Translations under genes and position numbers: made by a program
DNA from: Stenocarpella maydis
Taxonomy: Eukaryota; Ascomycota; Sordariomycetes; Diaporthales; Diaporthaceae
Length of the DNA stretch: 64,000 bases
Assembly: GCA_002270565.1 (NCBI GenBank)
Contig: NQMI01000026.1
Location: 1-64,000 of the forward strand
Direction of reading: 5' to 3'
Shown: one piece after another, positions 1 through 30,903 of the stretch
Layout: the number at the start of each line of letters is the position of its first letter
Position numbering within the stretch: the first letter of the stretch is position 1
Notes under the pieces: generated by a model
What the model saw: only the letters and a program-made list of their open reading frames with translations
Told to the model about the DNA's origin: nothing
The model's database searches: none

Positions 1-3000
1 CTCCTTACTGGCCCCTCCCCTCCCCCCCCCCAAAAAAACACTGATACGAGCCAACAACGTGAAACAAAGCTTTAATTCTGATCTCTGGTGAAGAGGAGGA
101 AGAAGAAGAGCAGCAGCAGCAGCGCTAGCCCCACGAGCTTGACTTCCTCTTGGCACACACACAGCCCACGACACGACAGAGAGACGAGTGTCGCCCTCTC
201 AACTCCCACGTGGGAGAACGGGTGGCGCGAGTCGCGCGACGTGTCTCGGCCACGATGGCGACAAAAAAAAAATGGAAAACAAAAAACTTAGTCTTGGTTG
301 CTAATGTCATATGCAATATTAGGTTGTTAGGTGTGCCTGTGTGTGTGTGTGTGTGTGCGCGTGCTAAAACCTCGCGCCCAGGACCGGGTTGTGAGCCCCT
401 TGACCCTGCCAGGCCCAGCGGCGCGAGCCAACGACGGGGTGATATAAACACGTCCCCGTGTGTGTGCACGCCGGCTGGCGGTCGACCCCGACAGCGCGAT
501 CTGGCCAGAAGGTCATAATTTATGGTTTCGACAACCGGCAGGAGCCGAGCCCGATGGTTTGTTATGTCGTACTGATGGTATGCGCAACATGAGAGATCCC
601 TGGTCGGGAGGGTAGAGGAGGGGTGTGCGCAATCGTCGTGAATGGTAAACAAGCAAGGGCAGAATGCCATAGGACGAAAAAAAAGTCGCTCCTCATCAAA
701 GCAGGATCGGAGGAGGCCCGGGGGTCGGAGGTCGTATCGGTGCGAGTATTAACTTTCCGGCGCCCCTCGTGAGGTCGTATATGAGCCTCATGCAGTGCGA
801 TGCGGGGCCCTCAGCCTCGCGCAAAGGCTAGATTTTGGGGGGGGGGGGAACAAGGGGTCAAGATAGGAAAAAAAAGCTCTTTCTCGGCTTATAGCATCCG
901 GGATATATTGCGCAGGACGGAACATAAAGGAGTGGACTTGTAGCACGGCATTGGACCCGGGCGCCGGAGGCCTGGCAACTCCCACGACCTTCACCTATTC
1001 CGCTATTATCTTTCGGGCAGCTGAAACTGTGGCACCGACAGCGGGAAACCGCCGGGCACAGGTTGTGGCACCGGGAGAGCTCGCCCGGGGCACGCAGCTC
1101 GCCTGGTCAAACGAGCGTGCCGCTGCGATCCCGGAAACCGGATTGTGTGCCGTGTTGTCTTAGAAGCTACATGTGTACATGGAACGTGCGCGTGTGTGCC
1201 CGAGGAAATGTTGTCGCGTGCCACCTCATGCCTCTGGTGTGTGGTGCGGGTGGCTTTCCGACGGAACGTGATACCTATTGTTACTATCACACTCTAGAAT
1301 TATGTTCCAGTGAAACTTTAGCCAGAATACGCGTCCATCTGGGGTGCCATGTACGCGCTCGTGGGGGGTCTGGGGCTGTTCGCGTCTAGCCCAAGGGCGT
1401 AGTAGACTAGCAATGGTTGCCAAGGGACAAGGCTGAACTCTGTTCAAATAGGACAAATGTTAGATATAGTCTCAGGCGAAGGCTTAACCCGGATGCAGGA
1501 TTCCTTGCGGCAGGGAGGGGTTGGGCCTGCATGACATGGTCCGTCTGTTCCCTTAGCACGGGAGCCGCATCTTGCACACAGACGTTTCCCCTCTCCGAGT
1601 CTGTGCCTTTTTCTCGGCTTGATCGCCCGGAGAATAACAGTACACACGACCCGGACTGGGCGACCACCGGTAGGGGTTGTTGGCCTTTGTTTTGTGAGAA
1701 AGGCAAGCCGTGATTGGGGATGGATCTCGACATCCAACGGTTCTCCAGTGACAATAGCCAGTACAGGAGACAACCCCCCCCCCGTCGTATTCATGTAATG
1801 AGAGAAAATGAGAAGTCACCGGCAGCTGGTACCAAAATAGAAGCGCAGAGGCAAGCAGTGACGGAGGAGAGGTTGCCCGGTTCGCGTGGTGTGGTTGACG
1901 GGCGCTGGGGACAGTGCCTGGCACCTGCGGCCGAGCCTGCGCCTGCGCCCGCAGCCGTCGTTTATCCCGTTCGAGTTGCCCCTGAACTAGCGCGAAGGTT
2001 GACGCGGTGTCGGGAGATGGCCTCCGGGGACATGGGGGGTGGAGAAGGAGGGGACAAGAGAAAGCAATCAGGCAATCCGACGATCTGAACCGGACAAGGT
2101 CGCACAGGCTGCGCTGCACAGCGTGGCATCCGGAGGTTGAAGGGCGTGTTGCGTGCAGATGAGACGAATGCGACTTCGTACCGCTGCACGAGGCAGCAGA
2201 GCAGGAGCTGTCATGTCATGCAACGGTAGCGTGCCAGAGGCTCACGGGTGACAGCGGCCATGGATGGAGCATGGGTTGGTTAGCCCACCCACCCCACGCT
2301 CATCAGCATTGCTACTCTGCGCACCCGGCCACCACACACGCATGTGCCAGGCGCCTAGTACGCAGACGAAGTACGTTGGAATCCCCGAGGCTCGGTTTTG
2401 TGCTCGGGAAGGCTGGGATGACCGGCTGGCCGACTGGGCGTACTATGTACTGTACACGGTTCCGATTGAAGAAGCAGAGGGAGATGGTGAGGGGCGTTAG
2501 ATCTCACATTGATCGACAAGCCAGACTGCCGTTCTGGGGTGGGCGGTTGCCAACCCGGGCAGTCTGGGGCGCGTGTTAGACCCCACCATCACATTCTCTC
2601 ACTTGCCGTTCCTGGAGTCGTGCAGGAGCAGTTGCTGGATCGACGATCCAGGGTGTGGATGCTAATCGCATACGCGACTGACGTGGTACGGAGTAGTACC
2701 TTGTACGACGAAGTGGTCAAAGTTGGGCAGACTGTGGGCACCCGAAACACGGCCCAGCACCAAAACATGCAGAGAGAAGAAGACCGAGTCAACACCCTGT
2801 CAATGTAAATGGGGGTGCTTCAAGAAAAAAGAAAGAAAAGAAGGAGGATGGAAGGGCGCAGCAGCACGACCGCAGACAGCCTGGGAGGAGAGGGGTGTGT
2901 GCCTGTACCTGGGGAGTTTGGAGCAAGCCGGACCTGGTCGCTTGGGCACACAAATTGGGCATTGACAAGATCGCTACCCCCATCTAGGTTCGTGCCAGTA

Positions 3001-4618
3001 TCATGTCACGACAGGGTAGTTGCTTCTTTGCAATAAAGGAACAGTGCAGATGTAAATGAAGGAGATGGACATTGGAAATGAGGGCGAGATGCACATCATA
3101 GACAAGCGAGGGTGTGGCTGGGCGGGGACGGGACGACGAACACCAGTCGATCCCCGTCGGCTCGAGAGGCTCTCTGATGGCTTATGGCATTGACAGGTTG
3201 ACCAAAACAAGAGGTAGACGGGATGAACCGAATTATCAGGACAGGTTGACAGCAGCAACAGTCAAGATGCAAGGCAGGGGGTGGGAGACGGAAGAAGAGA
3301 TCCTTTGTTGCCCTATGGAGGTGCGTGCGGGCGTAAGATGTACCTACACCAGGTATACTGTACCTGAGAGAGCGGCTAGTACATACCTGCGTACTAAGGT
3401 AGTCTGTACCTAGGTGGTGTATACATATATACCTACATCAATGTATCCATCCTCGTTGGGGTGTGCGGAGGGTGCATCCTCTTGTTCGTCCCCGAGCAGG
3501 CTCAGATGCAGATAATACCTACACCAGAGTTGGTAGATGCGGACTCGGGTACTGTGTATATTGGCAGCTCCCCCTGAATCGAGACGCACTGGATGATTAC
3601 CTGCCCCAGATAGCTGGGTAATTAGGATTGATGGTGGTGTGCGGAGTGAGAAGCCCACTTGAGGCGACATGCATACACGCACGCACCCCAAACAGAATTA
3701 GGTACTGTAGATACACACAGTACAAGGACACGATGGATCTGCAGTGATGTGTCGAGGTACCCGATACTTTTTGAAGCCTCCTGTGATCTCCTGTGGTCAA
3801 GGGTGGGAGGCGAATTGGGTTTCGCTATTGCCTTTTCGCAGCCCATCTCAACAAAGCAACAAGACAGGATGTATAGGTAGGGTGAGCGAGCCCTATAGAG
3901 AAGGTTTCCCCTACCATGCCCTCCCCCCTTCCCGCCTCCTTCTTCTTTTCACTCTAATCCTCGGTTGCCCCTGGGTGGGCGGACTGGACTAGAAGCATTT
4001 CGGGGAAGGTTGATGTGGTAGTTGTGGGTGGGGGCATGAAAGCAATGTTGCTGGTGCGACCACTGCACTGCACTTCACTGCACTGCATGGCACTCGGGTT
4101 TTGTATTGCCTGTATTCAATGCCTTGGGAGTGGCCTGGAGGGATGGATGGATGGATGGACACAAGCAAAGCAGACACGGTCGGCTTGATGAGTATCTACT
4201 ACATACCTACACTAGTGCGGGAGCGGAGCAATTCATGAGACCCCCCACCGTTGCTTCTCCGATTTGCCCACCGCCCCTCAGGGACCAACCGTTCAAGGGA
4301 CCGAAGCCTAACACTTGGGAGTGAGGACAGGCAGAGACCCACAGGGATTTCATTGACTTGAACCCTGGGCTGGGTCTGGAGCCCGGGACTGGCCTGTCTC
4401 CTCCGTGCATGTTCCTTTACCGTATCGGTTGACTTGCCAGAGAAAAAGGCCAACAAGTCAAACTCCTTGCTGCCCTCCTTGTCAGGAACATACGAGTAAC
4501 CAGCAGTCAGTACTCCGTAGCTAGGCCTGGATACGGACGGGACCTGCGTGTGCCGTAAATTTTCCTTTCCTCGACATTCCCTCCGACACGGAGAAGCGGC
4601 GCCCATTCCGCTGCAACG

Positions 4619-4655
4619 ACTACTACTACTATTACTACTGCTACTACTACTACTT
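4619..4655. repeat. TAC/TACT-type trinucleotide microsatellite
   Basis: This is an imperfect run of TAC triplets in the pyrimidine-rich leader region before the DENN gene. The mirror copy lies near 25755-25791. Confidence 0.85.
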
Positions 4656-4770
4656 TGTTTTTCTTTCCTTATCCCCCTCTACACGCTTCATTTTTTTTGT
4701 GGCGGCAGCACCAATCTGTTCGTTCCTGAACGGCTTGCCCGTGCCAGCCCAGCCCAGTCCCCGAACCTCC

Positions 4771-4805
4771 TGTTGCTGCTGCTGCTCCTGCTGCTGCTCC
4801 TGCTA
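4771..4805. repeat. CTG/CTC trinucleotide microsatellite
   Basis: A run of CTG triplets interrupted by CTC gives spurious poly-leucine frames. It lies about 600 bases upstream of the DENN start codon. The mirror copy lies near 25605-25639. Confidence 0.85.
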
Positions 4806-5405
4806 CCGATCTTCCCACATTCACGCCCTCGCCCTCGCCTTCAACCTCACTCTCGACCTTCAGCCAAGTATCGCCTAGCTTGTTGCGCGCACCCTACTCT
4901 GAGACAGACAGCTCTTCCTGCCGGGCATTGATCCGAGGCGCACTTGCGAGAGACTTCAGCAGCCCTCGTCTCAACTGTCGTCCTCCCCTCCCGCACCCAA
5001 CTTCACACCACACCCCCACCTCGCCTCCCGCATCCCTTCACCTCACCCACCTCTCCGTCCGCGCCCAACGGCTTTCCACAGCTCCCGCTCTTGAGACAGC
5101 ACCTGCGACGGCAGCCTCCCAGCCCCTACAGCTCGGTCTGCATCCGCCGCATTACCTGCCAAAAAGGCGCCCCGCTCTCCTCTTCGGGGGCACCACGTCC
5201 AACCCCCCCCCCCAATCAGCAACTCACGTGTCGCGACCACTTTTGTTAGCTGCTGTCGCCCGCCCAAGACTTGGTCTCGCCGTCCAATTCCCGCCCAGTC
5301 CTGGGGCCTGACCAGAACCCTTCCTCTGGCCTACCAATGACCCCATGAAGGAGCGACCGCTGTGGTTTAGAGAAGTGCAAGCTAGCTAGTAGCAGACCAG
5401 CGGCC

Positions 5406-8400
5406 ATGGACGCCTCCTCAGCTCCCCTCGCCGACTACTTCTGGATCGCCGGCATACAAGACATATCCTATCATGACAATGACCCCGACCCGCGTCCCCT
5501 GAGCTCCCTCCAGCTCAACGACACCATCAGGGAGGACGCTGAGCACGAGGCTTCCGATATCCTCACCGAGACCCCCACCAAGGACACTGCCCGCCACTCG
5601 AGAAGGAGCTCAGTCAACCGGATATCCAGGATCCCTTCCAACGAGAACAATCGCTTCTCCATACAGACGCTGGGCGAGGAAAATGAGGGTACCAGGAGTA
5701 ATAGAAGCAGCGCCACCATACGGGCAGTGCCGCCCGTCAACGGTGGCAGCAGCACCGACGAAAGCCCCTTCAGTCCCACAGAACCCCCCGCCCCTGCCGA
5801 GGGCGCGTCTACGACGTCCACGACCAATGGCGGCGGACAGGGCGTGGGATTCACCGGCCTTCCAGATTTCGACTTCGACAAGGCTCTTATGAAGTTTGCC
5901 GCAGAAAGAGAAATCTTTTTGGACGACCTGAGTTTCACTGCTGGGGCCAAGCTGCAGGCGCGCCCTCCAATGGTGAACAATCCGCGCGCCGAGAGGATCA
6001 AGGCCGAGGAGGGCGAGCTCAGCGGCAGGATGAGCCCCTTGAAAAGCATCAGGGGGAGCATCCGACGCAAGATCAGTTTTAGGGACATGAACAGCGTCAA
6101 GAGGCAGACCGCTCCTCCTCGCGCACGGCCAGGTAAGAACTCTCGCCCCCGGGTCGGCAGGATTGAAGTTTGGTGCCGGGGCATATGCTGATTTGATCCC
6201 AGCCTCCGTCCGGACCACGAAGCGGTTGAGCAATTACAATTCTGTCATTCCGCCGCCAGAGCCCCTAAATATGGACCCGGACATGCATCCACTCAAGAGA
6301 CGTTTTGAGCCCAAATTACTGGATAGATATCCTAAGGACTCACCAGATGAAAAGACTCGAAGGGGCAAATTCCCGGACTACGTGCCCATGTTCGCTTTTC
6401 CCAATGATATCCAAGTTGTCTCATCCGACGAGCGACCGCGCGCCACATGGCACGGCTTCACCATGACCTCTGATGACAACTCCAAGCTCTACGGGATCAC
6501 CGTGATAGTGTGGACCGCGTTGACCGCTGACGTTGCTGACATAGTCGAGAAGAAGTGCGAATCGTGGAGGCAGAAACACATGTCAGACGAGGAGCGAGAA
6601 CTGGCGGCTAGCCTAGGGGCCCGCCTTGCGGCTGAGCGTGCGCACCTCTCCCAGCTTCTCGCAAAACTCCCCACGATCCCATCTGGTTCTCCCGCTAGGG
6701 ACCTTCTCGACGATCAGATCAGCACCGTGGAGGAGAAGATCAGCCTCATGACCGAGATGCTGCGCCCGCTCAGGCACGGTGCCGCGTCCAAAATCGATGG
6801 CCTCACCGCAGGGGACACCGGGTTGTGGACACCACGGGCCTACGGCATCCTGGGCCGGGACGTGACCAAGATAACTTTTTGGAAGGATTGGCTCCGGTCC
6901 ATCATTGTGCCCATGACCGATGGTGCGGTCTTGAGGGTACCACCGAGCTCGCCCAAGGTCGGGCGGTGGCAGCCGCTTGAGCACTACGTTGTCAACCTCT
7001 GCATCGAGGCCGTCAGTCCCATCAGCTCCAAGACCCAGGTGGAGCTCGGCGTCAGGGAGCTTCGTCTCTACTGCCGTAAAGAGGCAGCCAACGAGCTCCC
7101 CGGCTCACGCAATATCGACATCTACGCGCTTTTCAGGTGCCTGTCTCTCGAGAACATCGTGGCTCTGTTCGAGTATGCCATGTCCGAATCGCGCATCATC
7201 TTTATCTCATCCTACACGGCAATGCTTCACCTCGCATGCCATGCTCTTGTGAACCTGCTGTACCCCCTGAAGTGGGCTAGCGTTTTCATTCCTGTGTTAC
7301 CGGCAAGGCTACTCTCCGCGCTCGACGCCCCGTGTCCCTACATCGTGGGTATCGAGAGGCGGTACGACAATATCGAACTCCCAGAGGACGACTACGTCCT
7401 GGTCGATCTGGACAGGGACACCATCGACGCCACCTCTCAGCCCCATCGCCTACCCCGGCAACACCGCAGGAAGCTCTTCTCACTCTTGCAGATCGCCGCG
7501 CCGCACAAGCTGCGCTATGGCGTTACCACTGGTGCTCCCCCTTACGCCATCGAGGCTTTCCCCTACGACGCCTATTCGGCAGAGAACGATGGCATCTTCA
7601 ACGCCACTCCTGCGCCCGCCACACTGGGCAAGTGGGTGTCCCAGAACTCGTCTACATTCGCCGAGCCAGACCCACCCAACAGCATCCGAAAGCCAATCTT
7701 CAACGCCTTTTGTCACGCCAAGCCTGACCACTCGAGGTCCGACAGGCCGGCGACAGCACGATCTGGGAAGACGAGCCCGAACTCTTCTGTCTCGCCAGTG
7801 TCCATGACGTTCCCGCCGATGCCGACGACGCCAGTGTCACGGACCGATTCGGGATTCGCGGCGTCGGGCACTCTGAAGGAGAAGCGTTCTGGCCATTTTG
7901 ATACCCAATCGCGACGTAGTTCGTCCTTTGGTGTGGAACAGCACCCTCCGCTTCACAGACCCAGTATTCCGGTTCTCAATGGCCACTCTCAAAATCTGTC
8001 CGTGTCATCCACCTCTGGGGACTCGCATTCGTCATACCACACTGGCTATGCCCCATCCTCGTATGCACAGTCGACAATTGCAGCGTCGACCGTGATGCCC
8101 AACATGCTTGTGCAGCCCGTTGAGAACACGGACACGACAGTGTGGGTAGAGGGACACTGTATGGAATGGAATGTGGCAGAGCGCGATTCCGTTTGCGACA
8201 TCTGCGACGAACGTTCAGAGGGCGATGGGCTATTCAAATGCAAGGGTTGTAACTGTCTCGCTCACAACCGCTGCCTGGGCTTCGTCTGCCTTGTCTGCCC
8301 CGTCGCCTTCCACGCAGACCGTGTCCGCGCCGCCTTTGTTCGCTGCCTTGCTAGCCTGCTGTATACCTATAGGAAGTATATGGGTCGACCGAACAAGCAG

Positions 8401-8984
8401 CAGAAGGAAAATGGCCAGCTTTACGCCTTTGACATGAGTGGCTTTATTAGGAGCTTGCCGTATGACCAACAGGAGTACGCGACGATGATGAAGGACACGC
8501 AAGGTAAGTCGGCACCTCGGGGGAGCGACCGAGTGGCTATAGTGAATTGTGCTGACGGAATCAAGCTTTCAATGAGTTCATCCATGAGCGAGAGCGGCAG
8601 CCCGCGAGCCACCCTGACAACCGACTCTTTGATGAGATTTTGATCGCCAAAAAGGCCCGTGGACGACCCGCCCTCTCGGCCGGTCTGTCACGACTCTCGA
8701 CCCTCAGGGCAAGCCACAGTTCTTCTGGCGGGTTGCCGCCCCAACGGCAACCCAAGCTTACAGGGTTCATGGCCGACACGTCAGACCACATATGGAGGAC
8801 TGCAGCTGTCCCCGTGCCCAACGCGAAATTTCAGGGCGACTATCGTTCGATCATCACCAGGATCCCCGATAAGCTTGACCCGAATCTCATCAAGGAGCCG
8901 CGGTCCATCGCCGGTGCACCAAAGCCTGAGCCGCGTGGCAAGGGATTTTTAAGGAAAGCAATTGGGAGCAGTACCAAGGGCTAA
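5406..8984 (+). CDS. DENN (AEX-3) domain protein with C1-like zinc finger, three exons (left-arm copy)
   Basis: Exons are 5406-6132, 6203-8503 and 8566-8984, giving 1148 residues. Both introns (70 and 62 bp) start with gtaag and join the reading frames exactly; the second has branch point gctgac and acceptor tcaag. The N-terminus (PLADYFWIAG) is the usual opening of a uDENN domain, which continues near residues 300-350. The cDENN core lies at about 479-640 (VPMTDGAVLRVP, then SRIIFISSYTAMLHLACHAL). A Cys/His-rich C1-like finger (CDICDER, then CKGCNCLAHNRC) spans about 893-941, and the dDENN part follows to the end (FNEFIHERERQPASHPDNRL). DENN proteins are generally Rab guanine-nucleotide exchange factors on membranes; the Rab served here is unknown. 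An Ser/Thr/Pro-rich linker separates the cDENN domain from the finger. A second, apparently identical copy is in the right arm. Confidence 0.9.
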
Positions 8985-9546
8985 CCTCATGCATCCTCAA
9001 ATCACAAGGTCTGTGACCTATTCAATGGAGATCACATTTAATGTCTCTCACGGGAAGGGGTTCTGAGAGCACTCCCGCCTCGCAGTAGGAACGCCCACCG
9101 TCGGTGCTATAGAGGAGACCATGGGATCTGGCTGGGAAAGACCTGTCTCAGGGTCATCAAAGGAGATATGGGCATGGTATTGAGAACCCCGAGCTCATCA
9201 ATTTGCTTTGTATGAGAAGGTTGTTTGGATCAGAGCCAGGCTGAGGGAATGGCATTGTCATTTACGAAGTGCCCATGTACAAGTAGGTGGATGTTTTAAG
9301 AGAAGGTGGTTTGCCTTTCAAAGGCCACTGTGGACAATCGCCATCTGTTGAATAAAGTGCATTCAGGCAGGCTGGATTCCAGTAGTATGGTAATAATCTC
9401 AGCTGAGGGAATTCGGGTCATTCTGTCACTTGACCTTGACTATGGATTGTGACTCTATTGACCTTTGACGAAAATGTCCACCGGTAGAGCACCGGGCTCA
9501 ATCATCCTCGGGCGCGGGATCGCCAGCAGTTTCGTCTTCAAGGCTG
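8985..9546. other. Convergent 3' intergenic region, DENN / TRAPPC13
   Basis: About 560 bases between two converging genes. It must hold both 3' untranslated regions; an aataaa-like element occurs near 9350. I see no gene in it. The mirror copy is 20864-21425. Confidence 0.6.
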
Positions 9547-10817
9547 TCATGTAATATGCCTGGTCCCTAGCTTGTTCGTTGCGAGATAGCCCCTCTGGCC
9601 CATCTCTGTCCTCCAGCCGATGCCCAGGATGCCGAACATGATCTTACCGTCCTGCTCCTCCACGCAGGGCCGCCCCGCGTCCGGCACATGCCCATTCTCT
9701 GCCTCCTCGACGACGAAGCACACCTGCTCCACCTCGCCCGGGTGCAGCACCGGCCGCGGGGAGCCCCCCGCCTCCCAGTTGCAGTCGCGGTACGTCAGCC
9801 CGGGCTCGAGCTGGAGCACCACACGCTCCAGCTCCGTCGTGTCCTCGGAGCAGTTCTCGAGCTGCGCCTCGAGGACCCACCTCCTCCCCCTCCTCCCCGC
9901 CGTGCCCGTGCCTGTGCCCGTGGCCACCTCCGCCTCCCCGCCGGTACCTCCTTCCGGCGGCGGCGTCGGCGGGGAGGACACGCCCTCTGCCGGCAGCGCA
10001 CTAGGAGCAACCGCTGGCGCTAGCGGCGACGCCTTGGTCCGCACGATCAGGCTGGGCTTGCAGACGAACTGGTACAGCTTGCGGAAGGTGCGCGTGCGCC
10101 CGGACGTGTCGGTCGCCTCGTAGTACGACACGGTCACGCCCAGCACGTGGTTCCCCTCCTCCTTGAGGTCGAAGTTGACGATGCGCTGCAGCGTCCGGCC
10201 CGGCTCCAGGTCCACGCCGCCCGCGGCGGGCTTGCCCTGGCCGTCTCCGCCCCCGCTACTGCTGCCGCTGGCGCTGGTGCTGGGCGGCGATAGGTCGAGC
10301 CTGGTTGCGGCGGCCGCGTTGGGCGTCTTCATCTCCGCCTCGATGCGCACGTCGCGGATGTACTTCCTCGGCGGCGGCGGCGGCGGTGGTGTGGCCGCCT
10401 GCTCCGGGGCTGCTGCAGCGGGCGCGGGGGGCGGCGGCGGCGCCTCGTGGTTGGCGCATAGCGTGCAGCTGAAGGTCTCGCCCACGTAGGCGGAGCCGAA
10501 GCTCGGCGGGAGGTTGAGGATGGGGCTGAGGAGGAAGGGCGAGGGGTTGGTGTCGTGGGTCGTGCTGTATGCGAGGGAGGCCGGGACCGGGGGCTGGCGG
10601 TGCGCGGCTGACGGGGCTGCTCTTGGGGGTATGGGGTGCTGGGCGACCAGGGAGGGGCGGGAGAGCCTGGGGGTGCGGAAGTCGGTCAGTCAGCCTGGCT
10701 TGTGTGTGTCGTCGAGGGGCCGCTTGTTGTGGTGTTGATCACCTACCGGAGGACCTTCAAGGAGATGGAGTGGGGCTCCTTGACAGGGTCGTGGGAGGCG
10801 TAGCGTTGGTGGCTCAT
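9547..10817 (-). CDS. trappc13: Trafficking protein particle complex subunit 13 (TRAPPC13, DUF974), intact left-arm copy
   Basis: Exons on the minus strand are 10817-10747 and 10666-9547, with an 80-bp intron carrying gtaggt, a ctgac branch and cccag. The product is 396 residues. Family landmarks in order: SISLKVLRLSRPSLVAQHP near the N-terminus, LPPSFGSAYVGETFSCTLCAN, RIVNFDLKEEGNHVLGVTVSY, the cargo-like beta-sandwich ending in FGILGIGWRTEMGQRGYLAT. TRAPPC13 is a non-core subunit of the TRAPP complexes that activate Rab1/Ypt1-type GTPases at the early Golgi and in autophagy. A proline- and alanine-rich insert follows the CTLCAN motif. The reading frame depends on the five-base G run at 10589-10593 (plus strand); with four the frame breaks, as in the other arm. 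It faces the DENN gene tail to tail. Confidence 0.9.
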
Positions 10818-15205: not shown

Positions 15206-15230
15206 CCCCGAGTTAGGAACGAAAACTTAC
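15181..15230. other. Palindrome apex, zero-length spacer
   Basis: The axis lies between 15205 and 15206 in the self-complementary decamer cggggccccg. It falls 25 bases after a perfect 5' splice site (gtaagt at 15181) whose mirror image ends at 15230. A natural long palindrome usually has an asymmetric spacer and is unstable in cloning. A perfect, spacer-free fold-back is typical of a hairpin or missed-adapter read. Confidence 0.9.
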
Positions 15231-16250
15231 AGAGTGGGAGCCGGAGCCAGAGGCGGGGGCAGCAGAGGACATCTAACATAACAGTTAACACAGGCGCAGC
15301 GCCGCAGCATGAGGAAACACGGTATAGAACTAACGGTTGTTGATATCTGGTGGTGGCTATAATGAAGTTAGTAGGGACCTACTATCGAGCGCGCCCCGTA
15401 TATGCTGCGCAAATGAAGGCACGGAACTTACTGCTGTTGTTGTTGCTGTTGCTACTGCTGCTGCTGCTGCTGCTGCTTCTATAAGGCGTTAGTACTGCTT
15501 CCATGATACTCACCTAGGGGGCATACCTACTGATTATTGGGTTGGCTGGAGAAGAAAAAGAAAAGAAGAGAAGAAAAGGAAGGGAGGGAGAGGTTATATA
15601 TGAATGGCTATGATGGTGTATCGCGGGTATGATGGTGATGATGCTATTTAGAATAATGGCTATTCAGAATAATGGCTAACCCTTAAAAGATAATAATAAG
15701 GGCGCTAATAATGGGGACTATCTTGAATAATAAGAAAACCCCGGCTAGGCCCCCGATTACGTATTGCTGCTACCGCGATTAATTAGTATTCCCAACTCCC
15801 GAGCAATACCCAACCCGACTACTATTGTATTACACTATAATAAGAGTCGTGCTACGCCCTTGGAAGTGGTAACGCACCGGACGCGCTGCTATAACTCTTC
15901 GTGTATGTAGCACCTATATAGAGAATGGTATTAGGATATTGCTCCTGGGGATAGGAGCTTGGAAGGGAGGGCGAGCCTGTTAGGACCCGACGGATCGCAC
16001 GCTTTGAGGAAGCGTTGAGGAAGCAGCGATATTACTGCTTGGACCTCTGCTGGCCTATAAAAGGAATGACTTAAGACTGGGAAGAGTGACTTAATAACCC
16101 TTAGAATGGGTAGAGTATGGAATGAGGGCTAGTTATGATTGCGGTGAGGCTGTGTAGAGACTGCGTAGTGTGGATGCGGGTTGGTTTATAAAAGGGTAGC
16201 TGAGGAAGGGGATAGAAGAAGGAAGAAGGAGGCTAATGATTAGTAGTTCT
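15206..16250 (-). mobile_element. Right-arm copy of the repeat-like, intron-rich fragment
   Basis: This is the mirror image of 14161-15205, with the putative exons now on the minus strand starting from an ATG at 15524. Two of the arm differences lie here: t at 16005 (partner g at 14406) and g at 15866 (partner a at 14545). Confidence 0.4.
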
Positions 16251-19593: not shown

Positions 19594-20863
19594 ATGAGCC
19601 ACCAACGCTACGCCTCCCACGACCCTGTCAAGGAGCCCCACTCCATCTCCTTGAAGGTCCTCCGGTAGGTGATCAACACCACAACAAGCGGCCCCTCGAC
19701 GACACACACAAGCCAGGCTGACTGACCGACTTCCGCACCCCCAGGCTCTCCCGCCCCTCCCTGGTCGCCCAGCACCCCATACCCCCAAGAGCCGCCCCGT
19801 CCGCCGCGCACCGCCAGCCCCGGTCCCGGCCTCCCTCGCATACAGCACGACCCACGACACCAACCCCTCGCCCTTCCTCCTCAGCCCCATCCTCAACCTC
19901 CCGCCGAGCTTCGGCTCCGCCTACGTGGGCGAGACCTTCAGCTGCACGCTATGCGCCAACCACGAGGCGCCGCCGCCGCCCCCCGCGCCCGCTGCAGCAG
20001 CCCCGGAGCAGGCGGCCACACCCCCGCCGCCGCCGCCGCCGAGGAAGTACATCCGCGACGTGCGCATCGAGGCGGAGATGAAGACGCCCAACGCGGCCGC
20101 CGCAACCAGGCTCGACCTATCGCCGCCCAGCACCAGCGCCAGCGGCAGCAGTAGCGGGGGCGGAGACGGCCAGGGCAAGCCCGCCGCGGGCGGCGTGGAC
20201 CTGGAGCCGGGCCGGACGCTGCAGCGCATCGTCAACTTCGACCTCAAGGAGGAGGGGAACCACGTGCTGGGCGTGACCGTGTCGTACTACGAGGCGACCG
20301 ACACGTCCGGGCGCACGCGCACCTTCCGCAAGCTGTACCAGTTCGTCTGCAAGCCCAGCCTGATCGTGCGGACCAAGGCGTCGCCGCTAGCGCCAGCGGT
20401 TGCTCCTAGTGCGCTGCCGGCAGAGGGCGTGTCCTCCCCGCCGACGCCGCCGCCGGAAGGAGGTACCGGCGGGGAGGCGGAGGTGGCCACGGGCACAGGC
20501 ACGGGCACGGCGGGGAGGAGGCGGAGGAGGTGGGTCCTCGAGGCGCAGCTCGAGAACTGCTCCGAGGACACGACGGAGCTGGAGCGTGTGGTGCTCCAGC
20601 TCGAGCCCGGGCTGACGTACCGCGACTGCAACTGGGAGGCGGGGGGCTCCCCGCGGCCGGTGCTGCACCCGGGCGAGGTGGAGCAGGTGTGCTTCGTCGT
20701 CGAGGAGGCAGAGAATGGGCATGTGCCGGACGCGGGGCGGCCCTGCGTGGAGGAGCAGGACGGTAAGATCATGTTCGGCATCCTGGGCATCGGCTGGAGG
20801 ACAGAGATGGGCCAGAGGGGCTATCTCGCAACGAACAAGCTAGGGACCAGGCATATTACATGA
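19594..20863 (+). pseudogene. trappc13: TRAPPC13, right-arm copy with a one-base frameshift
   Basis: Exons correspond to 19594-19664 and 19745-20863, which add up to 1190 bases and so are not a multiple of three. The lesion is the C4 run at 19818-19821, where the left arm has C5. Before it the frame reads VLRLSRPSLVAQHPIPPRAA as in the intact copy; after it the correct frame (SLAYSTTHDTNPSPF, then YVGETFSCTLCAN) is one base off. Other differences from the left copy are two synonymous third-position changes near 19793-19802, one synonymous change at 20023 and one Gly-to-Arg change at 20522. A homopolymer length error is a simple explanation, so the break may not be biological. Confidence 0.85.
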
Positions 20864-21425
20864 CAGCCTTGAAGACGAAACTGCTGGCGATCCCGCGCCC
20901 GAGGATGATTGAGCCCGGTGCTCTACCGGTGGACATTTTCGTCAAAGGTCAATAGAGTCACAATCCATAGTCAAGGTCAAGTGACAGAATGACCCGAATT
21001 CCCTCAGCTGAGATTATTACCATACTACTGGAATCCAGCCTGCCTGAATGCACTTTATTCAACAGATGGCGATTGTCCACAGTGGCCTTTGAAAGGCAAA
21101 CCACCTTCTCTTAAAACATCCACCTACTTGTACATGGGCACTTCGTAAATGACAATGCCATTCCCTCAGCCTGGCTCTGATCCAAACAACCTTCTCATAC
21201 AAAGCAAATTGATGAGCTCGGGGTTCTCAATACCATGCCCATATCTCCTTTGATGACCCTGAGACAGGTCTTTCCCAGCCAGATCCCATGGTCTCCTCTA
21301 TAGCACCGACGGTGGGCGTTCCTACTGCGAGGCGGGAGTGCTCTCAGAACCCCTTCCCGTGAGAGACATTAAATGTGATCTCCATTGAATAGGTCACAGA
21401 CCTTGTGATTTGAGGATGCATGAGG

Positions 21426-24400
21426 TTAGCCCTTGGTACTGCTCCCAATTGCTTTCCTTAAAAATCCCTTGCCACGCGGCTCAGGCTTTGGTGCACCGGC
21501 GATGGACCGCGGCTCCTTGATGAGATTCGGGTCAAGCTTATCGGGGATCCTGGTGATGATCGAACGATAGTCGCCCTGAAATTTCGCGTTGGGCACGGGG
21601 ACAGCTGCAGTCCTCCATATGTGGTCTGACGTGTCGGCCATGAACCCTGTAAGCTTGGGTTGCCGTTGGGGCGGCAACCCGCCAGAAGAACTGTGGCTTG
21701 CCCTGAGGGTCGAGAGTCGTGACAGACCGGCCGAGAGGGCGGGTCGTCCACGGGCCTTTTTGGCGATCAAAATCTCATCAAAGAGTCGGTTGTCAGGGTG
21801 GCTCGCGGGCTGCCGCTCTCGCTCATGGATGAACTCATTGAAAGCTTGATTCCGTCAGCACAATTCACTATAGCCACTCGGTCGCTCCCCCGAGGTGCCG
21901 ACTTACCTTGCGTGTCCTTCATCATCGTCGCGTACTCCTGTTGGTCATACGGCAAGCTCCTAATAAAGCCACTCATGTCAAAGGCGTAAAGCTGGCCATT
22001 TTCCTTCTGCTGCTTGTTCGGTCGACCCATATACTTCCTATAGGTATACAGCAGGCTAGCAAGGCAGCGAACAAAGGCGGCGCGGACACGGTCTGCGTGG
22101 AAGGCGACGGGGCAGACAAGGCAGACGAAGCCCAGGCAGCGGTTGTGAGCGAGACAGTTACAACCCTTGCATTTGAATAGCCCATCGCCCTCTGAACGTT
22201 CGTCGCAGATGTCGCAAACGGAATCGCGCTCTGCCACATTCCATTCCATACAGTGTCCCTCTACCCACACTGTCGTGTCCGTGTTCTCAACGGGCTGCAC
22301 AAGCATGTTGGGCATCACGGTCGACGCTGCAATTGTCGACTGTGCATACGAGGATGGGGCATAGCCAGTGTGGTATGACGAATGCGAGTCCCCAGAGGTG
22401 GATGACACGGACAGATTTTGAGAGTGGCCATTGAGAACCGGAATACTGGGTCTGTGAAGCGGAGGGTGCTGTTCCACACCAAAGGACGAACTACGTCGCG
22501 ATTGGGTATCAAAATGGCCAGAACGCTTCTCCTTCAGAGTGCCCGACGCCGCGAATCCCGAATCGGTCCGTGACACTGGCGTCGTCGGCATCGGCGGGAA
22601 CGTCATGGACACTGGCGAGACAGAAGAGTTCGGGCTCGTCTTCCCAGATCGTGCTGTCGCCGGCCTGTCGGACCTCGAGTGGTCAGGCTTGGCGTGACAA
22701 AAGGCGTTGAAGATTGGCTTTCGGATGCTGTTGGGTGGGTCTGGCTCGGCGAATGTAGACGAGTTCTGGGACACCCACTTGCCCAGTGTGGCGGGCGCAG
22801 GAGTGGCGTTGAAGATGCCATCGTTCTCTGCCGAATAGGCGTCGTAGGGGAAAGCCTCGATGGCGTAAGGGGGAGCACCAGTGGTAACGCCATAGCGCAG
22901 CTTGTGCGGCGCGGCGATCTGCAAGAGTGAGAAGAGCTTCCTGCGGTGTTGCCGGGGTAGGCGATGGGGCTGAGAGGTGGCGTCGATGGTGTCCCTGTCC
23001 AGATCGACCAGGACGTAGTCGTCCTCTGGGAGTTCGATATTGTCGTACCGCCTCTCGATACCCACGATGTAGGGACACGGGGCGTCGAGCGCGGAGAGTA
23101 GCCTTGCCGGTAACACAGGAATGAAAACGCTAGCCCACTTCAGGGGGTACAGCAGGTTCACAAGAGCATGGCATGCGAGGTGAAGCATTGCCGTGTAGGA
23201 TGAGATAAAGATGATGCGCGATTCGGACATGGCATACTCGAACAGAGCCACGATGTTCTCGAGAGACAGGCACCTGAAAAGCGCGTAGATGTCGATATTG
23301 CGTGAGCCGGGGAGCTCGTTGGCTGCCTCTTTACGGCAGTAGAGACGAAGCTCCCTGACGCCGAGCTCCACCTGGGTCTTGGAGCTGATGGGACTGACGG
23401 CCTCGATGCAGAGGTTGACAACGTAGTGCTCAAGCGGCTGCCACCGCCCGACCTTGGGCGAGCTCGGTGGTACCCTCAAGACCGCACCATCGGTCATGGG
23501 CACAATGATGGACCGGAGCCAATCCTTCCAAAAAGTTATCTTGGTCACGTCCCGGCCCAGGATGCCGTAGGCCCGTGGTGTCCACAACCCGGTGTCCCCT
23601 GCGGTGAGGCCATCGATTTTGGACGCGGCACCGTGCCTGAGCGGGCGCAGCATCTCGGTCATGAGGCTGATCTTCTCCTCCACGGTGCTGATCTGATCGT
23701 CGAGAAGGTCCCTAGCGGGAGAACCAGATGGGATCGTGGGGAGTTTTGCGAGAAGCTGGGAGAGGTGCGCACGCTCAGCCGCAAGGCGGGCCCCTAGGCT
23801 AGCCGCCAGTTCTCGCTCCTCGTCTGACATGTGTTTCTGCCTCCACGATTCGCACTTCTTCTCGACTATGTCAGCAACGTCAGCGGTCAACGCGGTCCAC
23901 ACTATCACGGTGATCCCGTAGAGCTTGGAGTTGTCATCAGAGGTCATGGTGAAGCCGTGCCATGTGGCGCGCGGTCGCTCGTCGGATGAGACAACTTGGA
24001 TATCATTGGGAAAAGCGAACATGGGCACGTAGTCCGGGAATTTGCCCCTTCGAGTCTTTTCATCTGGTGAGTCCTTAGGATATCTATCCAGTAATTTGGG
24101 CTCAAAACGTCTCTTGAGTGGATGCATGTCCGGGTCCATATTTAGGGGCTCTGGCGGCGGAATGACAGAATTGTAATTGCTCAACCGCTTCGTGGTCCGG
24201 ACGGAGGCTGGGATCAAATCAGCATATGCCCCGGCACCAAACTTCAATCCTGCCGACCCGGGGGCGAGAGTTCTTACCTGGCCGTGCGCGAGGAGGAGCG
24301 GTCTGCCTCTTGACGCTGTTCATGTCCCTAAAACTGATCTTGCGTCGGATGCTCCCCCTGATGCTTTTCAAGGGGCTCATCCTGCCGCTGAGCTCGCCCT

Positions 24401-25004
24401 CCTCGGCCTTGATCCTCTCGGCGCGCGGATTGTTCACCATTGGAGGGCGCGCCTGCAGCTTGGCCCCAGCAGTGAAACTCAGGTCGTCCAAAAAGATTTC
24501 TCTTTCTGCGGCAAACTTCATAAGAGCCTTGTCGAAGTCGAAATCTGGAAGGCCGGTGAATCCCACGCCCTGTCCGCCGCCATTGGTCGTGGACGTCGTA
24601 GACGCGCCCTCGGCAGGGGCGGGGGGTTCTGTGGGACTGAAGGGGCTTTCGTCGGTGCTGCTGCCACCGTTGACGGGCGGCACTGCCCGTATGGTGGCGC
24701 TGCTTCTATTACTCCTGGTACCCTCATTTTCCTCGCCCAGCGTCTGTATGGAGAAGCGATTGTTCTCGTTGGAAGGGATCCTGGATATCCGGTTGACTGA
24801 GCTCCTTCTCGAGTGGCGGGCAGTGTCCTTGGTGGGGGTCTCGGTGAGGATATCGGAAGCCTCGTGCTCAGCGTCCTCCCTGATGGTGTCGTTGAGCTGG
24901 AGGGAGCTCAGGGGACGCGGGTCGGGGTCATTGTCATGATAGGATATGTCTTGTATGCCGGCGATCCAGAAGTAGTCGGCGAGGGGAGCTGAGGAGGCGT
25001 CCAT
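21426..25004 (-). CDS. DENN (AEX-3) domain protein (right-arm copy)
   Basis: Exons on the minus strand are 25004-24278, 24207-21907 and 21844-21426. The splice sites, frame joins and translation of 1148 residues are the same as in the left copy, and I saw no difference in the protein. Domains are uDENN, cDENN, C1-like finger and dDENN, as described for the left copy. If the palindrome is an artefact, this is the copy connected to the unique chromosome on its outer side. Confidence 0.88.
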
Positions 25005-28000
25005 GGCCGCTGGTCTGCTACTAGCTAGCTTGCACTTCTCTAAACCACAGCGGTCGCTCCTTCATGGGGTCATTGGTAGGCCAGAGGAAGGGTTCTGGTC
25101 AGGCCCCAGGACTGGGCGGGAATTGGACGGCGAGACCAAGTCTTGGGCGGGCGACAGCAGCTAACAAAAGTGGTCGCGACACGTGAGTTGCTGATTGGGG
25201 GGGGGGGTTGGACGTGGTGCCCCCGAAGAGGAGAGCGGGGCGCCTTTTTGGCAGGTAATGCGGCGGATGCAGACCGAGCTGTAGGGGCTGGGAGGCTGCC
25301 GTCGCAGGTGCTGTCTCAAGAGCGGGAGCTGTGGAAAGCCGTTGGGCGCGGACGGAGAGGTGGGTGAGGTGAAGGGATGCGGGAGGCGAGGTGGGGGTGT
25401 GGTGTGAAGTTGGGTGCGGGAGGGGAGGACGACAGTTGAGACGAGGGCTGCTGAAGTCTCTCGCAAGTGCGCCTCGGATCAATGCCCGGCAGGAAGAGCT
25501 GTCTGTCTCAGAGTAGGGTGCGCGCAACAAGCTAGGCGATACTTGGCTGAAGGTCGAGAGTGAGGTTGAAGGCGAGGGCGAGGGCGTGAATGTGGGAAGA
25601 TCGGTAGCAGGAGCAGCAGCAGGAGCAGCAGCAGCAACAGGAGGTTCGGGGACTGGGCTGGGCTGGCACGGGCAAGCCGTTCAGGAACGAACAGATTGGT
25701 GCTGCCGCCACAAAAAAAATGAAGCGTGTAGAGGGGGATAAGGAAAGAAAAACAAAGTAGTAGTAGTAGCAGTAGTAATAGTAGTAGTAGTCGTTGCAGC
25801 GGAATGGGCGCCGCTTCTCCGTGTCGGAGGGAATGTCGAGGAAAGGAAAATTTACGGCACACGCAGGTCCCGTCCGTATCCAGGCCTAGCTACGGAGTAC
25901 TGACTGCTGGTTACTCGTATGTTCCTGACAAGGAGGGCAGCAAGGAGTTTGACTTGTTGGCCTTTTTCTCTGGCAAGTCAACCGATACGGTAAAGGAACA
26001 TGCACGGAGGAGACAGGCCAGTCCCGGGCTCCAGACCCAGCCCAGGGTTCAAGTCAATGAAATCCCTGTGGGTCTCTGCCTGTCCTCACTCCCAAGTGTT
26101 AGGCTTCGGTCCCTTGAACGGTTGGTCCCTGAGGGGCGGTGGGCAAATCGGAGAAGCAACGGTGGGGGGTCTCATGAATTGCTCCGCTCCCGCACTAGTG
26201 TAGGTATGTAGTAGATACTCATCAAGCCGACCGTGTCTGCTTTGCTTGTGTCCATCCATCCATCCATCCCTCCAGGCCACTCCCAAGGCATTGAATACAG
26301 GCAATACAAAACCCGAGTGCCATGCAGTGCAGTGAAGTGCAGTGCAGTGGTCGCACCAGCAACATTGCTTTCATGCCCCCACCCACAACTACCACATCAA
26401 CCTTCCCCGAAATGCTTCTAGTCCAGTCCGCCCACCCAGGGGCAACCGAGGATTAGAGTGAAAAGAAGAAGGAGGCGGGAAGGGGGGAGGGCATGGTAGG
26501 GGAAACCTTCTCTATAGGGCTCGCTCACCCTACCTATACATCCTGTCTTGTTGCTTTGTTGAGATGGGCTGCGAAAAGGCAATAGCGAAACCCAATTCGC
26601 CTCCCACCCTTGACCACAGGAGATCACAGGAGGCTTCAAAAAGTATCGGGTACCTCGACACATCACTGCAGATCCATCGTGTCCTTGTACTGTGTGTATC
26701 TACAGTACCTAATTCTGTTTGGGGTGCGTGCGTGTATGCATGTCGCCTCAAGTGGGCTTCTCACTCCGCACACCACCATCAATCCTAATTACCCAGCTAT
26801 CTGGGGCAGGTAATCATCCAGTGCGTCTCGATTCAGGGGGAGCTGCCAATATACACAGTACCCGAGTCCGCATCTACCAACTCTGGTGTAGGTATTATCT
26901 GCATCTGAGCCTGCTCGGGGACGAACAAGAGGATGCACCCTCCGCACACCCCAACGAGGATGGATACATTGATGTAGGTATATATGTATACACCACCTAG
27001 GTACAGACTACCTTAGTACGCAGGTATGTACTAGCCGCTCTCTCAGGTACAGTATACCTGGTGTAGGTACATCTTACGCCCGCACGCACCTCCATAGGGC
27101 AACAAAGGATCTCTTCTTCCGTCTCCCACCCCCTGCCTTGCATCTTGACTGTTGCTGCTGTCAACCTGTCCTGATAATTCGGTTCATCCCGTCTACCTCT
27201 TGTTTTGGTCAACCTGTCAATGCCATAAGCCATCAGAGAGCCTCTCGAGCCGACGGGGATCGACTGGTGTTCGTCGTCCCGTCCCCGCCCAGCCACACCC
27301 TCGCTTGTCTATGATGTGCATCTCGCCCTCATTTCCAATGTCCATCTCCTTCATTTACATCTGCACTGTTCCTTTATTGCAAAGAAGCAACTACCCTGTC
27401 GTGACATGATACTGGCACGAACCTAGATGGGGGTAGCGATCTTGTCAATGCCCAATTTGTGTGCCCAAGCGACCAGGTCCGGCTTGCTCCAAACTCCCCA
27501 GGTACAGGCACACACCCCTCTCCTCCCAGGCTGTCTGCGGTCGTGCTGCTGCGCCCTTCCATCCTCCTTCTTTTCTTTCTTTTTTCTTGAAGCACCCCCA
27601 TTTACATTGACAGGGTGTTGACTCGGTCTTCTTCTCTCTGCATGTTTTGGTGCTGGGCCGTGTTTCGGGTGCCCACAGTCTGCCCAACTTTGACCACTTC
27701 GTCGTACAAGGTACTACTCCGTACCACGTCAGTCGCGTATGCGATTAGCATCCACACCCTGGATCGTCGATCCAGCAACTGCTCCTGCACGACTCCAGGA
27801 ACGGCAAGTGAGAGAATGTGATGGTGGGGTCTAACACGCGCCCCAGACTGCCCGGGTTGGCAACCGCCCACCCCAGAACGGCAGTCTGGCTTGTCGATCA
27901 ATGTGAGATCTAACGCCCCTCACCATCTCCCTCTGCTTCTTCAATCGGAACCGTGTACAGTACATAGTACGCCCAGTCGGCCAGCCGGTCATCCCAGCCT

Positions 28001-30409
28001 TCCCGAGCACAAAACCGAGCCTCGGGGATTCCAACGTACTTCGTCTGCGTACTAGGCGCCTGGCACATGCGTGTGTGGTGGCCGGGTGCGCAGAGTAGCA
28101 ATGCTGATGAGCGTGGGGTGGGTGGGCTAACCAACCCATGCTCCATCCATGGCCGCTGTCACCCGTGAGCCTCTGGCACGCTACCGTTGCATGACATGAC
28201 AGCTCCTGCTCTGCTGCCTCGTGCAGCGGTACGAAGTCGCATTCGTCTCATCTGCACGCAACACGCCCTTCAACCTCCGGATGCCACGCTGTGCAGCGCA
28301 GCCTGTGCGACCTTGTCCGGTTCAGATCGTCGGATTGCCTGATTGCTTTCTCTTGTCCCCTCCTTCTCCACCCCCCATGTCCCCGGAGGCCATCTCCCGA
28401 CACCGCGTCAACCTTCGCGCTAGTTCAGGGGCAACTCGAACGGGATAAACGACGGCTGCGGGCGCAGGCGCAGGCTCGGCCGCAGGTGCCAGGCACTGTC
28501 CCCAGCGCCCGTCAACCACACCACGCGAACCGGGCAACCTCTCCTCCGTCACTGCTTGCCTCTGCGCTTCTATTTTGGTACCAGCTGCCGGTGACTTCTC
28601 ATTTTCTCTCATTACATGAATACGACGGGGGGGGGGTTGTCTCCTGTACTGGCTATTGTCACTGGAGAACCGTTGGATGTCGAGATCCATCCCCAATCAC
28701 GGCTTGCCTTTCTCACAAAACAAAGGCCAACAACCCCTACCGGTGGTCGCCCAGTCCGGGTCGTGTGTACTGTTATTCTCCGGGCGATCAAGCCGAGAAA
28801 AAGGCACAGACTCGGAGAGGGGAAACGTCTGTGTGCAAGATGCGGCTCCCGTGCTAAGGGAACAGACGGACCATGTCATGCAGGCCCAACCCCTCCCTGC
28901 CGCAAGGAATCCTGCATCCGGGTTAAGCCTTCGCCTGAGACTATATCTAACATTTGTCCTATTTGAACAGAGTTCAGCCTTGTCCCTTGGCAACCATTGC
29001 TAGTCTACTACGCCCTTGGGCTAGACGCGAACAGCCCCAGACCCCCCACGAGCGCGTACATGGCACCCCAGATGGACGCGTATTCTGGCTAAAGTTTCAC
29101 TGGAACATAATTCTAGAGTGTGATAGTAACAATAGGTATCACGTTCCGTCGGAAAGCCACCCGCACCACACACCAGAGGCATGAGGTGGCACGCGACAAC
29201 ATTTCCTCGGGCACACACGCGCACGTTCCATGTACACATGTAGCTTCTAAGACAACACGGCACACAATCCGGTTTCCGGGATCGCAGCGGCACGCTCGTT
29301 TGACCAGGCGAGCTGCGTGCCCCGGGCGAGCTCTCCCGGTGCCACAACCTGTGCCCGGCGGTTTCCCGCTGTCGGTGCCACAGTTTCAGCTGCCCGAAAG
29401 ATAATAGCGGAATAGGTGAAGGTCGTGGGAGTTGCCAGGCCTCCGGCGCCCGGGTCCAATGCCGTGCTACAAGTCCACTCCTTTATGTTCCGTCCTGCGC
29501 AATATATCCCGGATGCTATAAGCCGAGAAAGAGCTTTTTTTTCCTATCTTGACCCCTTGTTCCCCCCCCCCCCAAAATCTAGCCTTTGCGCGAGGCTGAG
29601 GGCCCCGCATCGCACTGCATGAGGCTCATATACGACCTCACGAGGGGCGCCGGAAAGTTAATACTCGCACCGATACGACCTCCGACCCCCGGGCCTCCTC
29701 CGATCCTGCTTTGATGAGGAGCGACTTTTTTTTCGTCCTATGGCATTCTGCCCTTGCTTGTTTACCATTCACGACGATTGCGCACACCCCTCCTCTACCC
29801 TCCCGACCAGGGATCTCTCATGTTGCGCATACCATCAGTACGACATAACAAACCATCGGGCTCGGCTCCTGCCGGTTGTCGAAACCATAAATTATGACCT
29901 TCTGGCCAGATCGCGCTGTCGGGGTCGACCGCCAGCCGGCGTGCACACACACGGGGACGTGTTTATATCACCCCGTCGTTGGCTCGCGCCGCTGGGCCTG
30001 GCAGGGTCAAGGGGCTCACAACCCGGTCCTGGGCGCGAGGTTTTAGCACGCGCACACACACACACACACACAGGCACACCTAACAACCTAATATTGCATA
30101 TGACATTAGCAACCAAGACTAAGTTTTTTGTTTTCCATTTTTTTTTTGTCGCCATCGTGGCCGAGACACGTCGCGCGACTCGCGCCACCCGTTCTCCCAC
30201 GTGGGAGTTGAGAGGGCGACACTCGTCTCTCTGTCGTGTCGTGGGCTGTGTGTGTGCCAAGAGGAAGTCAAGCTCGTGGGGCTAGCGCTGCTGCTGCTGC
30301 TCTTCTTCTTCCTCCTCTTCACCAGAGATCAGAATTAAAGCTTTGTTTCACGTTGTTGGCTCGTATCAGTGTTTTTTTGGGGGGGGGGGGGGGAGGGGCC
30401 AGTAAGGAG
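25005..30409. other. Right-arm copy of the gene-poor stretch
   Basis: This is the mirror of 1-5405. It ends with a G15 run at 30379-30393, where the left arm reads C10 T C4 (mismatch at base 21 / 30389). I see no supported gene. Confidence 0.6.

Positions 30410-30868: not shown

Positions 30869-30903
<35 letters not shown>

What the first reader, a model, noticed from the sequence alone, without database searches (positions are those of the whole stretch)
1..30409. A 30.4-kb near-perfect palindrome with no spacer
Bases 1-15205 and 15206-30409 are reverse complements at about 99.9 percent identity, with two copies each of a DENN gene, TRAPPC13 and a CorA-like pseudogene. A natural palindrome of this size with a zero-length loop would be very unstable. 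It begins at base 1, which suggests the contig or scaffold starts inside the left arm. The simplest reading is a fold-back read or assembly artefact; the exciting one is a fresh break-fusion inverted duplication.
Basis: partly seen in the sequence, partly recalled or inferred. Interest (0 to 1): 0.9.

Follow-up and report, generated by a model that had tools for sequence, protein, structure and literature searches.

The report
Fold-back assembly artefact at contig end
The first 30.4 kb of this fungal contig is one 15.2-kb stretch followed by its own mirror image, most likely made when a sequencing molecule or the assembly folded back on itself inside a repeated element, so the duplicated genes should probably not be counted as real.

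Summary
The palindrome is in the file: bases 1-15205 and 15206-30409 are reverse complements at 99.947%, without spacer, exact for 660 bp on each side of the apex. The window is the start of contig C177 of a 53.5-Mb assembly, so the left arm ends only because the contig ends. The fungus is near Diaporthe. I judge it a technical fold-back. (1) The apex lies 1.14 kb inside a dispersed integrase-encoding element; 8 of 8 other fetched copies continue past that point. (2) The 8 arm differences fall in error-prone places: 5 in GC-rich sequence, 2 in the element, 1 in poly-C; in TRAPPC13 each arm departs once from 6 of 6 relatives. (3) Relatives' locus tags fit the right arm's gene order. (4) Contig C67 starts with a 10.8-kb copy of C34, exact wherever sampled. 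(5) A 25-N run leaves a 32.8-kb piece, 93% palindrome. Against: 0 of 43 other contig ends are folded back, 3 of 4 TRAPPC13 substitutions are silent, and no reads were available. A recent real fusion stays possible.

The parts
1..15205 (-). left (terminal) arm: inverted copy of the right arm, running to the first base of the contig; judged artefactual
15206..30409 (+). right arm: judged the native locus, continuous with the rest of the contig and in the gene order suggested by relatives' locus tags
   Evidence: order
15205..15206 (.). apex: zero spacer, 660 bp exact mirror on each side; within 1 nt of a GGCC-centred palindrome seen in 6 of 7 aligned copies of the element
14069..15205 (-). left copy of the truncated dispersed element (terminal 1.14 kb only); strand inferred from the integrase frame of the C28 copy
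15206..16342 (+). right copy of the truncated dispersed element; other copies continue past the apex point and one encodes an LTR-retrotransposon-type integrase
16343..17507 (-). CorA-like gene fragment (right arm), cut by the element; the C-terminal part is missing
12904..14068 (+). mirror copy of the CorA-like fragment (left arm)
   Evidence: mirror coordinates
19673..20863 (+). TRAPPC13 (right arm), with a 1-base frameshift relative to the left copy
9550..10689 (-). TRAPPC13 (left arm), frame open here, but one residue departs from 6 of 6 aligned relatives
21767..25061 (-). DENN-domain gene (right arm, two overlapping open stretches)
5349..8643 (+). mirror copy of the DENN gene (left arm)
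   Evidence: mirror coordinates
9888..10618 (.). 731 bp at 73.3% GC, a value reached by 0.35% of same-length windows in the arm; holds 5 of the 8 arm differences
32815..32839 (.). run of 25 N, probably a scaffold gap; the piece to its left is 32.8 kb and 93% palindrome

Best explanation
The palindrome is a technical fold-back, not a chromosome structure. SHOWN: read leftward from the unique flank, the locus runs through a Gep3-like GTPase, Ypi1, DENN, TRAPPC13 and a CorA-like gene into a dispersed element, and 1.14 kb inside that element the sequence turns exactly on itself. INFERRED: one molecule or read folded back there, for example both strands of one fragment read in succession because a hairpin adaptor was missed, or a molecule joined to its own reverse copy at a short GC-rich palindrome. 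The assembler kept the second half as the contig's left end, because the true path through the repeat was not resolved. The left arm is then a second copy of the right arm, and the organism has one copy of these genes here. The confidence is for a technical origin in general; a fold-back molecule or read is the likeliest form.
For: Zero spacer with 660 bp exact mirror at the apex. The left arm ends at contig base 1, with no telomere repeat in the first 120 bases, while contig C182 does start in CCCTAA repeats. The apex truncates a dispersed element: 8 of 8 fetched copies continue past the apex point, from about 70 bp (C24) to 3.7 kb (C28 against C239); a ninth, on C111, also does, split by a nested insert. 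All 8 arm differences lie in error-prone sequence: 5 in a 731-bp stretch of 73.3% GC (clustering P about 0.0012, a test made after seeing the cluster), 2 in the element, 1 in a poly-C run at the edge; the remaining 13,297 bp, an exclusion also made afterwards, has none. In TRAPPC13 the right arm has a frameshift and the left arm a residue, each against 6 of 6 aligned relatives, so neither copy is clean. A second duplicated contig start exists: C67:1-10762 matches C34:81315-92076 wherever sampled: 2,686 bp exact, two 300-bp samples exact, 1,762 bp exact from C67:9001. Left of the 25-N run lies a 32.8-kb piece that is 93% palindrome; 18 of the 19 other contigs are 12.7-33.6 kb. Literature (passages): 0.5% of unamplified PacBio reads were called palindromic, a mix of false positives and missed adaptors (PMC6218980); a single chimeric read caused a misassembly in a fungal Canu assembly (PMC7500977).
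Against: No reads, depth or assembly graph were available. Fold-backs are not common here: 0 of 43 other contig ends has an inverted copy on its own contig. The far half of this element copy and the missing CorA C-terminus were not found elsewhere, which a real loss of the distal chromosome would also give. The open TRAPPC13 frame is in the terminal arm, not in the arm that joins the contig. Of the 4 substitutions inside TRAPPC13, 3 leave the protein unchanged (read off), which real divergence under selection would also give. The left arm's 99.95% identity needs many polishing reads or very accurate ones.
Confidence: 0.88

Rival explanations
1. A real, very recent inverted duplication: a chromosome broke inside the element, sister ends fused head to head (U-type fusion), and the unseen outer end is a new telomere or another chromosome.
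For: Zero spacer is what U-type sister fusion predicts (PMC3907307, passages). The event is isolated (0 of 43 ends). The distal half of the CorA-like gene was not found. 3 of 4 TRAPPC13 substitutions are silent. A GGCC-centred palindrome lies within 1 nt of the apex in 6 of 7 aligned element copies.
Against: In 21 of 21 sequenced human fold-back junctions there was a 766-70,466 bp spacer (PMC3907307). No outer flank or telomere is seen. The arm differences fall in error-prone sequence and each TRAPPC13 copy is wrong once. Such a palindrome should be unstable (established knowledge).
Confidence: 0.08
2. A purely computational form of the artefact (counted within the 0.88): no fold-back molecule existed; the assembler or a gap-filling step walked into the repeat and back out along the same path in reverse.
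For: The apex lies in a multi-copy element. C67 shows a duplicate in direct orientation that ends in diverged sequence. Contig lengths are not strictly sorted along what looks like a name-sorted order, which suggests later editing (inference).
Against: The exact zero-spacer apex needs some sequence that reads through it; the 7 aligned element copies have no inverted continuation there.
Confidence: 0.25
3. An old, stable palindrome kept alike by arm-to-arm gene conversion, as on sex chromosomes.
For: Long, nearly identical arms.
Against: No spacer; no difference between arms outside error-prone places; relatives' locus tags put these genes in the right arm's order; no flank at base 1.
Confidence: 0.01
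4. A variant of the artefact (counted within the 0.88): the DNA was whole-genome amplified, producing many inverted chimeras.
For: Amplification makes palindromic reads (PMC6218980, passages).
Against: It should be pervasive (43.6% and 47.8% of reads in two amplified Arabidopsis sets and 11.8% in a gorilla set of that paper), but 0 of 43 other contig ends are folded back.
Confidence: 0.02

Closest known systems
Palindromic long reads from missed SMRTbell adaptors or amplification chimeras (Pacasus paper, PMC6218980, passages)
   Same: inverted copy joined to the original strand
   Different: here it is seen in a finished contig with polished arms, not in a read; the library type is unknown
Contig misassembly from a single chimeric long read in a fungus (Drechmeria coniospora, PMC7500977, passages)
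   Same: a fungal contig with a part that does not belong there
   Different: [quoted passage not shown] here the same locus is joined to itself inside a repeat
Fold-back inverted duplications of human chromosomes (PMC3907307, abstract and passages)
   Same: large inverted copy; repeats or microhomology at junctions
   Different: those have a 766-70,466 bp single-copy spacer in 21 of 21 sequenced junctions; here there is none

Membership tests
fold-back read / missed-adaptor assembly artefact | inverted copy with no spacer | tested here: met
   centre between 15205 and 15206, 660 bp exact on each side
fold-back read / missed-adaptor assembly artefact | inverted copy runs to the contig end without its own flank | tested here: met
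   window starts at base 1 of C177
fold-back read / missed-adaptor assembly artefact | the two arms are one sequence, differing only by error | tested here: inconclusive
   for: all 8 differences in error-prone sequence, each TRAPPC13 copy wrong once; against: 3 of 4 TRAPPC13 substitutions silent
fold-back read / missed-adaptor assembly artefact | single depth over the arms; no read spans apex plus both flanks | not testable with these tools
   no reads held
fold-back read / missed-adaptor assembly artefact | similar duplicated ends elsewhere in the assembly | tested here: inconclusive
   0 of 43 ends folded back; 1 of 43 a long direct duplicate, C67; (18 ends) uninformative
break-fusion fold-back inverted duplication | single-copy spacer between the arms | tested here: not met
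   against PMC3907307
break-fusion fold-back inverted duplication | outer end in a telomere or another chromosome | tested here: inconclusive
   contig ends inside the arm, no telomere repeat in its first 120 bases
U-type sister-chromatid fusion | no spacer | tested here: met
U-type sister-chromatid fusion | doubled copy number of the arm in the cell | not testable with these tools
   no reads held
LTR retrotransposon (the element at the apex) | integrase with H2C2 zinc finger and rve core | tested here: met
   173-aa open stretch of the C28 copy (L009:5995-6516, minus): Integrase_H2C2 9.8e-16, rve 1.7e-8; the Ty3/Gypsy name is recalled
LTR retrotransposon (the element at the apex) | long terminal repeats | not tested
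   not examined

The most novel reading that the evidence does not exclude
A spacer-free head-to-head chromosome fusion, formed in the sequenced culture by joining two sister ends at a GGCC-centred palindrome inside a retrotransposon, leaving a 15-kb-plus nearly perfect palindrome with doubled DENN and TRAPPC13 genes and loss of the distal segment.
Probability: 0.08. Interest if true: 0.65.

Novelty: not a real feature. Interest (0 to 1): 0.12.

Why it matters
If it is an artefact, as I think, the lesson is practical: the gene copies in bases 1-15205 of this contig are spurious, gene-duplication counts for this genome are inflated there, and contig ends in it (C67 too) need checking. If it were real, a spacer-free palindrome with 15-kb arms in a filamentous fungus would be a rare snapshot of sister-chromatid fusion before breakage, at base resolution.

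Tried and rejected
Looked for the true continuation of the element past the apex at another contig end. One search listed nine matches on eight contigs (a lower bound: the C20 copy, which also continues past the point, is not among them); none starts at a contig edge at that point. The C111 copy, absent, looked like a possible partner but proved to span the apex point, with a nested insert. Looked for the missing C-terminal half of the CorA-like gene: three weak hits, best E 1.2e-5 at 38% identity; it may lie in stretches that read N, be degraded, be unassembled or be lost.

Tested whether the apex sits on a native palindrome: GGCC is at that place in 6 of the 7 aligned copies and the full GGGCCC in 2 of 7, but one base off in register, and a random bond is the centre of a palindrome of 6 bp or more 1.7% of the time. 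Allowing one base either way this is about 5% and only suggestive.

Tried to find the assembly in print: searches for Diaporthe with '312 scaffolds' or '312 contigs', and for PBJelly, AllPathsLG and Diaporthe, gave no paper that I could tie to this genome (listings; passages of PMC13170202). That 25-N runs are typical of PBJelly is recalled, not tested. Passages of PMC8495745 on chimeric reads were seen and not used. Rfam, ARAGORN and a phage comparison gave nothing. One screen of 18 further contig ends was swamped by high-copy repeats and is not counted. C251 starts with a 227-bp near-exact copy of part of C34, between A-rich runs, too short to count as a long duplicate.
Full report
WHAT IS THERE. 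A self-comparison of the window gives one inverted match, 1-30409 against itself, at 99.947%. The mirror centre lies between 15205 and 15206, with no spacer and no mismatch for 660 bp on each side. The window is bases 1-64000 of contig C177 (429,078 bp) in an assembly of 53,543,916 bases and 312 contigs. The left arm therefore stops because the contig stops, and base 30409 is the mirror of the contig end, not a breakpoint. Two arm pieces searched in the whole assembly (1-3000 and 8000-13500) occur at two places each, both on C177; the right flank piece 30410-33409 occurs once.

WHOSE DNA. The gene next to the palindrome (33178-35334) encodes a Gep3-like GTPase whose closest named relatives are from Diaporthe batatas and D. 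helianthi at 83%, with unnamed sources up to 88%. The fungus is in or near Diaporthe. Pfam confirms DENN and TRAPPC13 in the arm and Ypi1 just outside it. The CorA-like open frame has no Pfam match of its own, but 24 of 24 listed homologues carry PF26616.

WHICH ARM IS NATIVE. Locus tags printed in the protein searches suggest gene order in relatives (tags only; no genomic context was seen). In D. australafricana the tags are 010998 (Gep3-like), 011002 (TRAPPC13) and 011003 (CorA-like); in Cytospora schulzeri 09895, 09898 and 09899; in C. chrysosperma 05802 (Gep3-like) and 05806 (CorA-like); in D. eres 000591 (TRAPPC13) and 000592 (CorA-like). The right arm with its flank has this order. One case does not fit a tight cluster: in D. 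batatas the Gep3-like tag is 009842 and the TRAPPC13 tag 009879. The left arm has no flank at all.

WHERE THE APEX LIES. The inner 1.14 kb of each arm (14069-15205 and its mirror) belongs to a dispersed element. One search found 8 other places with 265-281 bp of it at 68-79% identity, besides many short hits to a triplet-repeat stretch. I fetched those 8 loci. They align to each other past the apex point in 8 of 8 cases, by about 70 bp (C24) to 3.7 kb (C28 against C239, 4.8 kb aligned in all). A ninth copy on C111 also spans the point, split by a nested insert. One copy has an open integrase fragment (Integrase_H2C2 9.8e-16, rve 1.7e-8), so this is an LTR-retrotransposon type; Ty3/Gypsy is my recalled label. 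The element cuts the CorA-like gene right after the residues EDGK, so its C-terminal part is missing. At the apex point 6 of 7 aligned copies show a GGCC-centred palindrome, one base off register. This is only suggestive, since about 1.7% of bonds are centres of a palindrome of 6 bp or more.

ARE THE ARMS TWO SEQUENCES OR ONE? There are 8 differences (7 substitutions, 1 indel) in 15.2 kb. Five lie between 9888 and 10618, a stretch of 73.3% GC (0.35% of same-length windows in the arm reach it). Such clustering has P about 0.0012 under uniform placement, in a test set up after the cluster was seen. Two lie in the repeated element and one in a poly-C run 21 bases from the contig end. The other 13,297 bp, an exclusion also made afterwards, have none. 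In TRAPPC13 the right arm carries a 1-base frameshift where the left arm and 6 of 6 aligned relatives agree. At another residue the left arm departs where the right arm and 6 of 6 relatives agree. Neither copy is clean, which fits consensus errors over one locus better than one intact and one decaying copy. Against this, the open frame is in the terminal arm, and 3 of the 4 substitutions inside TRAPPC13 are silent (read off), as real divergence would also give.

IS THIS ASSEMBLY PRONE TO SUCH ERRORS? I fetched 58 contig ends, one of them C177's own right end. Fifteen read N throughout; the other 43 were screened by 80-bp pieces against the whole assembly (17, 13, 13). All 43 were found at their own place, and no listed match is an inverted copy on the piece's own contig. 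Each search scored only 40 of 413-956 candidates, so weaker copies could be missed, but an exact copy should rank at the top. So fold-backs are not pervasive, which speaks against whole-genome amplification. A further 18 ends (fetched, searched) were swamped by repeats and are not counted. But C67 begins with a copy of the inside of C34: 2,686 bp at 100%, two 300-bp samples at 100%, and a stretch identical from C67:9001 to 10762, then diverging (97.8% over 9001-12724), then unrelated. The parts between samples were not read. This is a second long duplicated contig start, 1 of the 43. C251 begins with a short (227 bp) near-exact copy of C34.

THE N RUN. A run of 25 N lies at 32815-32839, 2.4 kb beyond the arm. 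If it is a scaffold gap and not a withheld stretch, the piece to its left is 32.8 kb and 93% palindrome. That is the size of small contigs here: 18 of the 19 other contigs are 12.7-33.6 kb. It would suit a contig built on one fold-back molecule.

MECHANISM. Most likely one molecule or read turned back inside the retroelement, where the assembler could not resolve the true path, and its second half became the contig's left end (0.88 for a technical origin in general; a molecule or read is likelier than a purely computational walk-back, because the exact apex needs a sequence that reads through it). [quoted passage not shown] A fungal Canu assembly had misassemblies traced to single chimeric reads (PMC7500977, passages). 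By contrast, 21 of 21 sequenced human fold-back duplications had a spacer of 766-70,466 bp, and that paper gives absence of a spacer as the mark of U-type exchange (PMC3907307, passages).

WHAT STAYS OPEN. No reads or depth could be examined. The distal part of this element copy and the missing part of the CorA-like gene were not found elsewhere, which a real terminal loss would also produce. I leave 8% for a real, recent fusion.

VERDICT. Real in the file, most likely not in the fungus. The gene copies in 1-15205 should not be counted without read support.

Noticed in passing
L075 (C67:1-3000), L076 (C34:80000-84000), L107 and L108: Contig C67 starts with a copy of about 10.8 kb of the inside of C34, exact wherever sampled, then diverges: a second duplicated contig end.
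   Followed up: partly
L095 (C251:1-300) and L096 (C34:187930-188300): C251 starts with a 227-bp near-exact copy of a C34 stretch between A-rich runs.
   Followed up: partly
window 16342-16343: An LTR-retrotransposon-type element truncates a CorA-like gene right after EDGK; the gene's C-terminal part was not found in the assembly beyond weak hits.
   Followed up: partly
L028 (C182:1-1000): This contig starts in CCCTAA repeats, so ordinary telomere-like ends exist in the assembly.
   Followed up: no
L127 (C111:33500-38500): A copy of the apex element is split by two tandem copies of a roughly 600-bp element with 95-97% relatives in L008 and L011.
   Followed up: no
locus tags: In Diaporthe batatas the Gep3-like and TRAPPC13 genes are 37 tags apart, unlike the tight cluster suggested in D. 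australafricana and Cytospora schulzeri.
   Followed up: no
starts of contigs C170-C189 (L017-L035): Of the 13 of these contig starts that do not read N, 9 have 35% GC or less, as expected of RIP-mutated repeats (RIP recalled, not tested).
   Followed up: no
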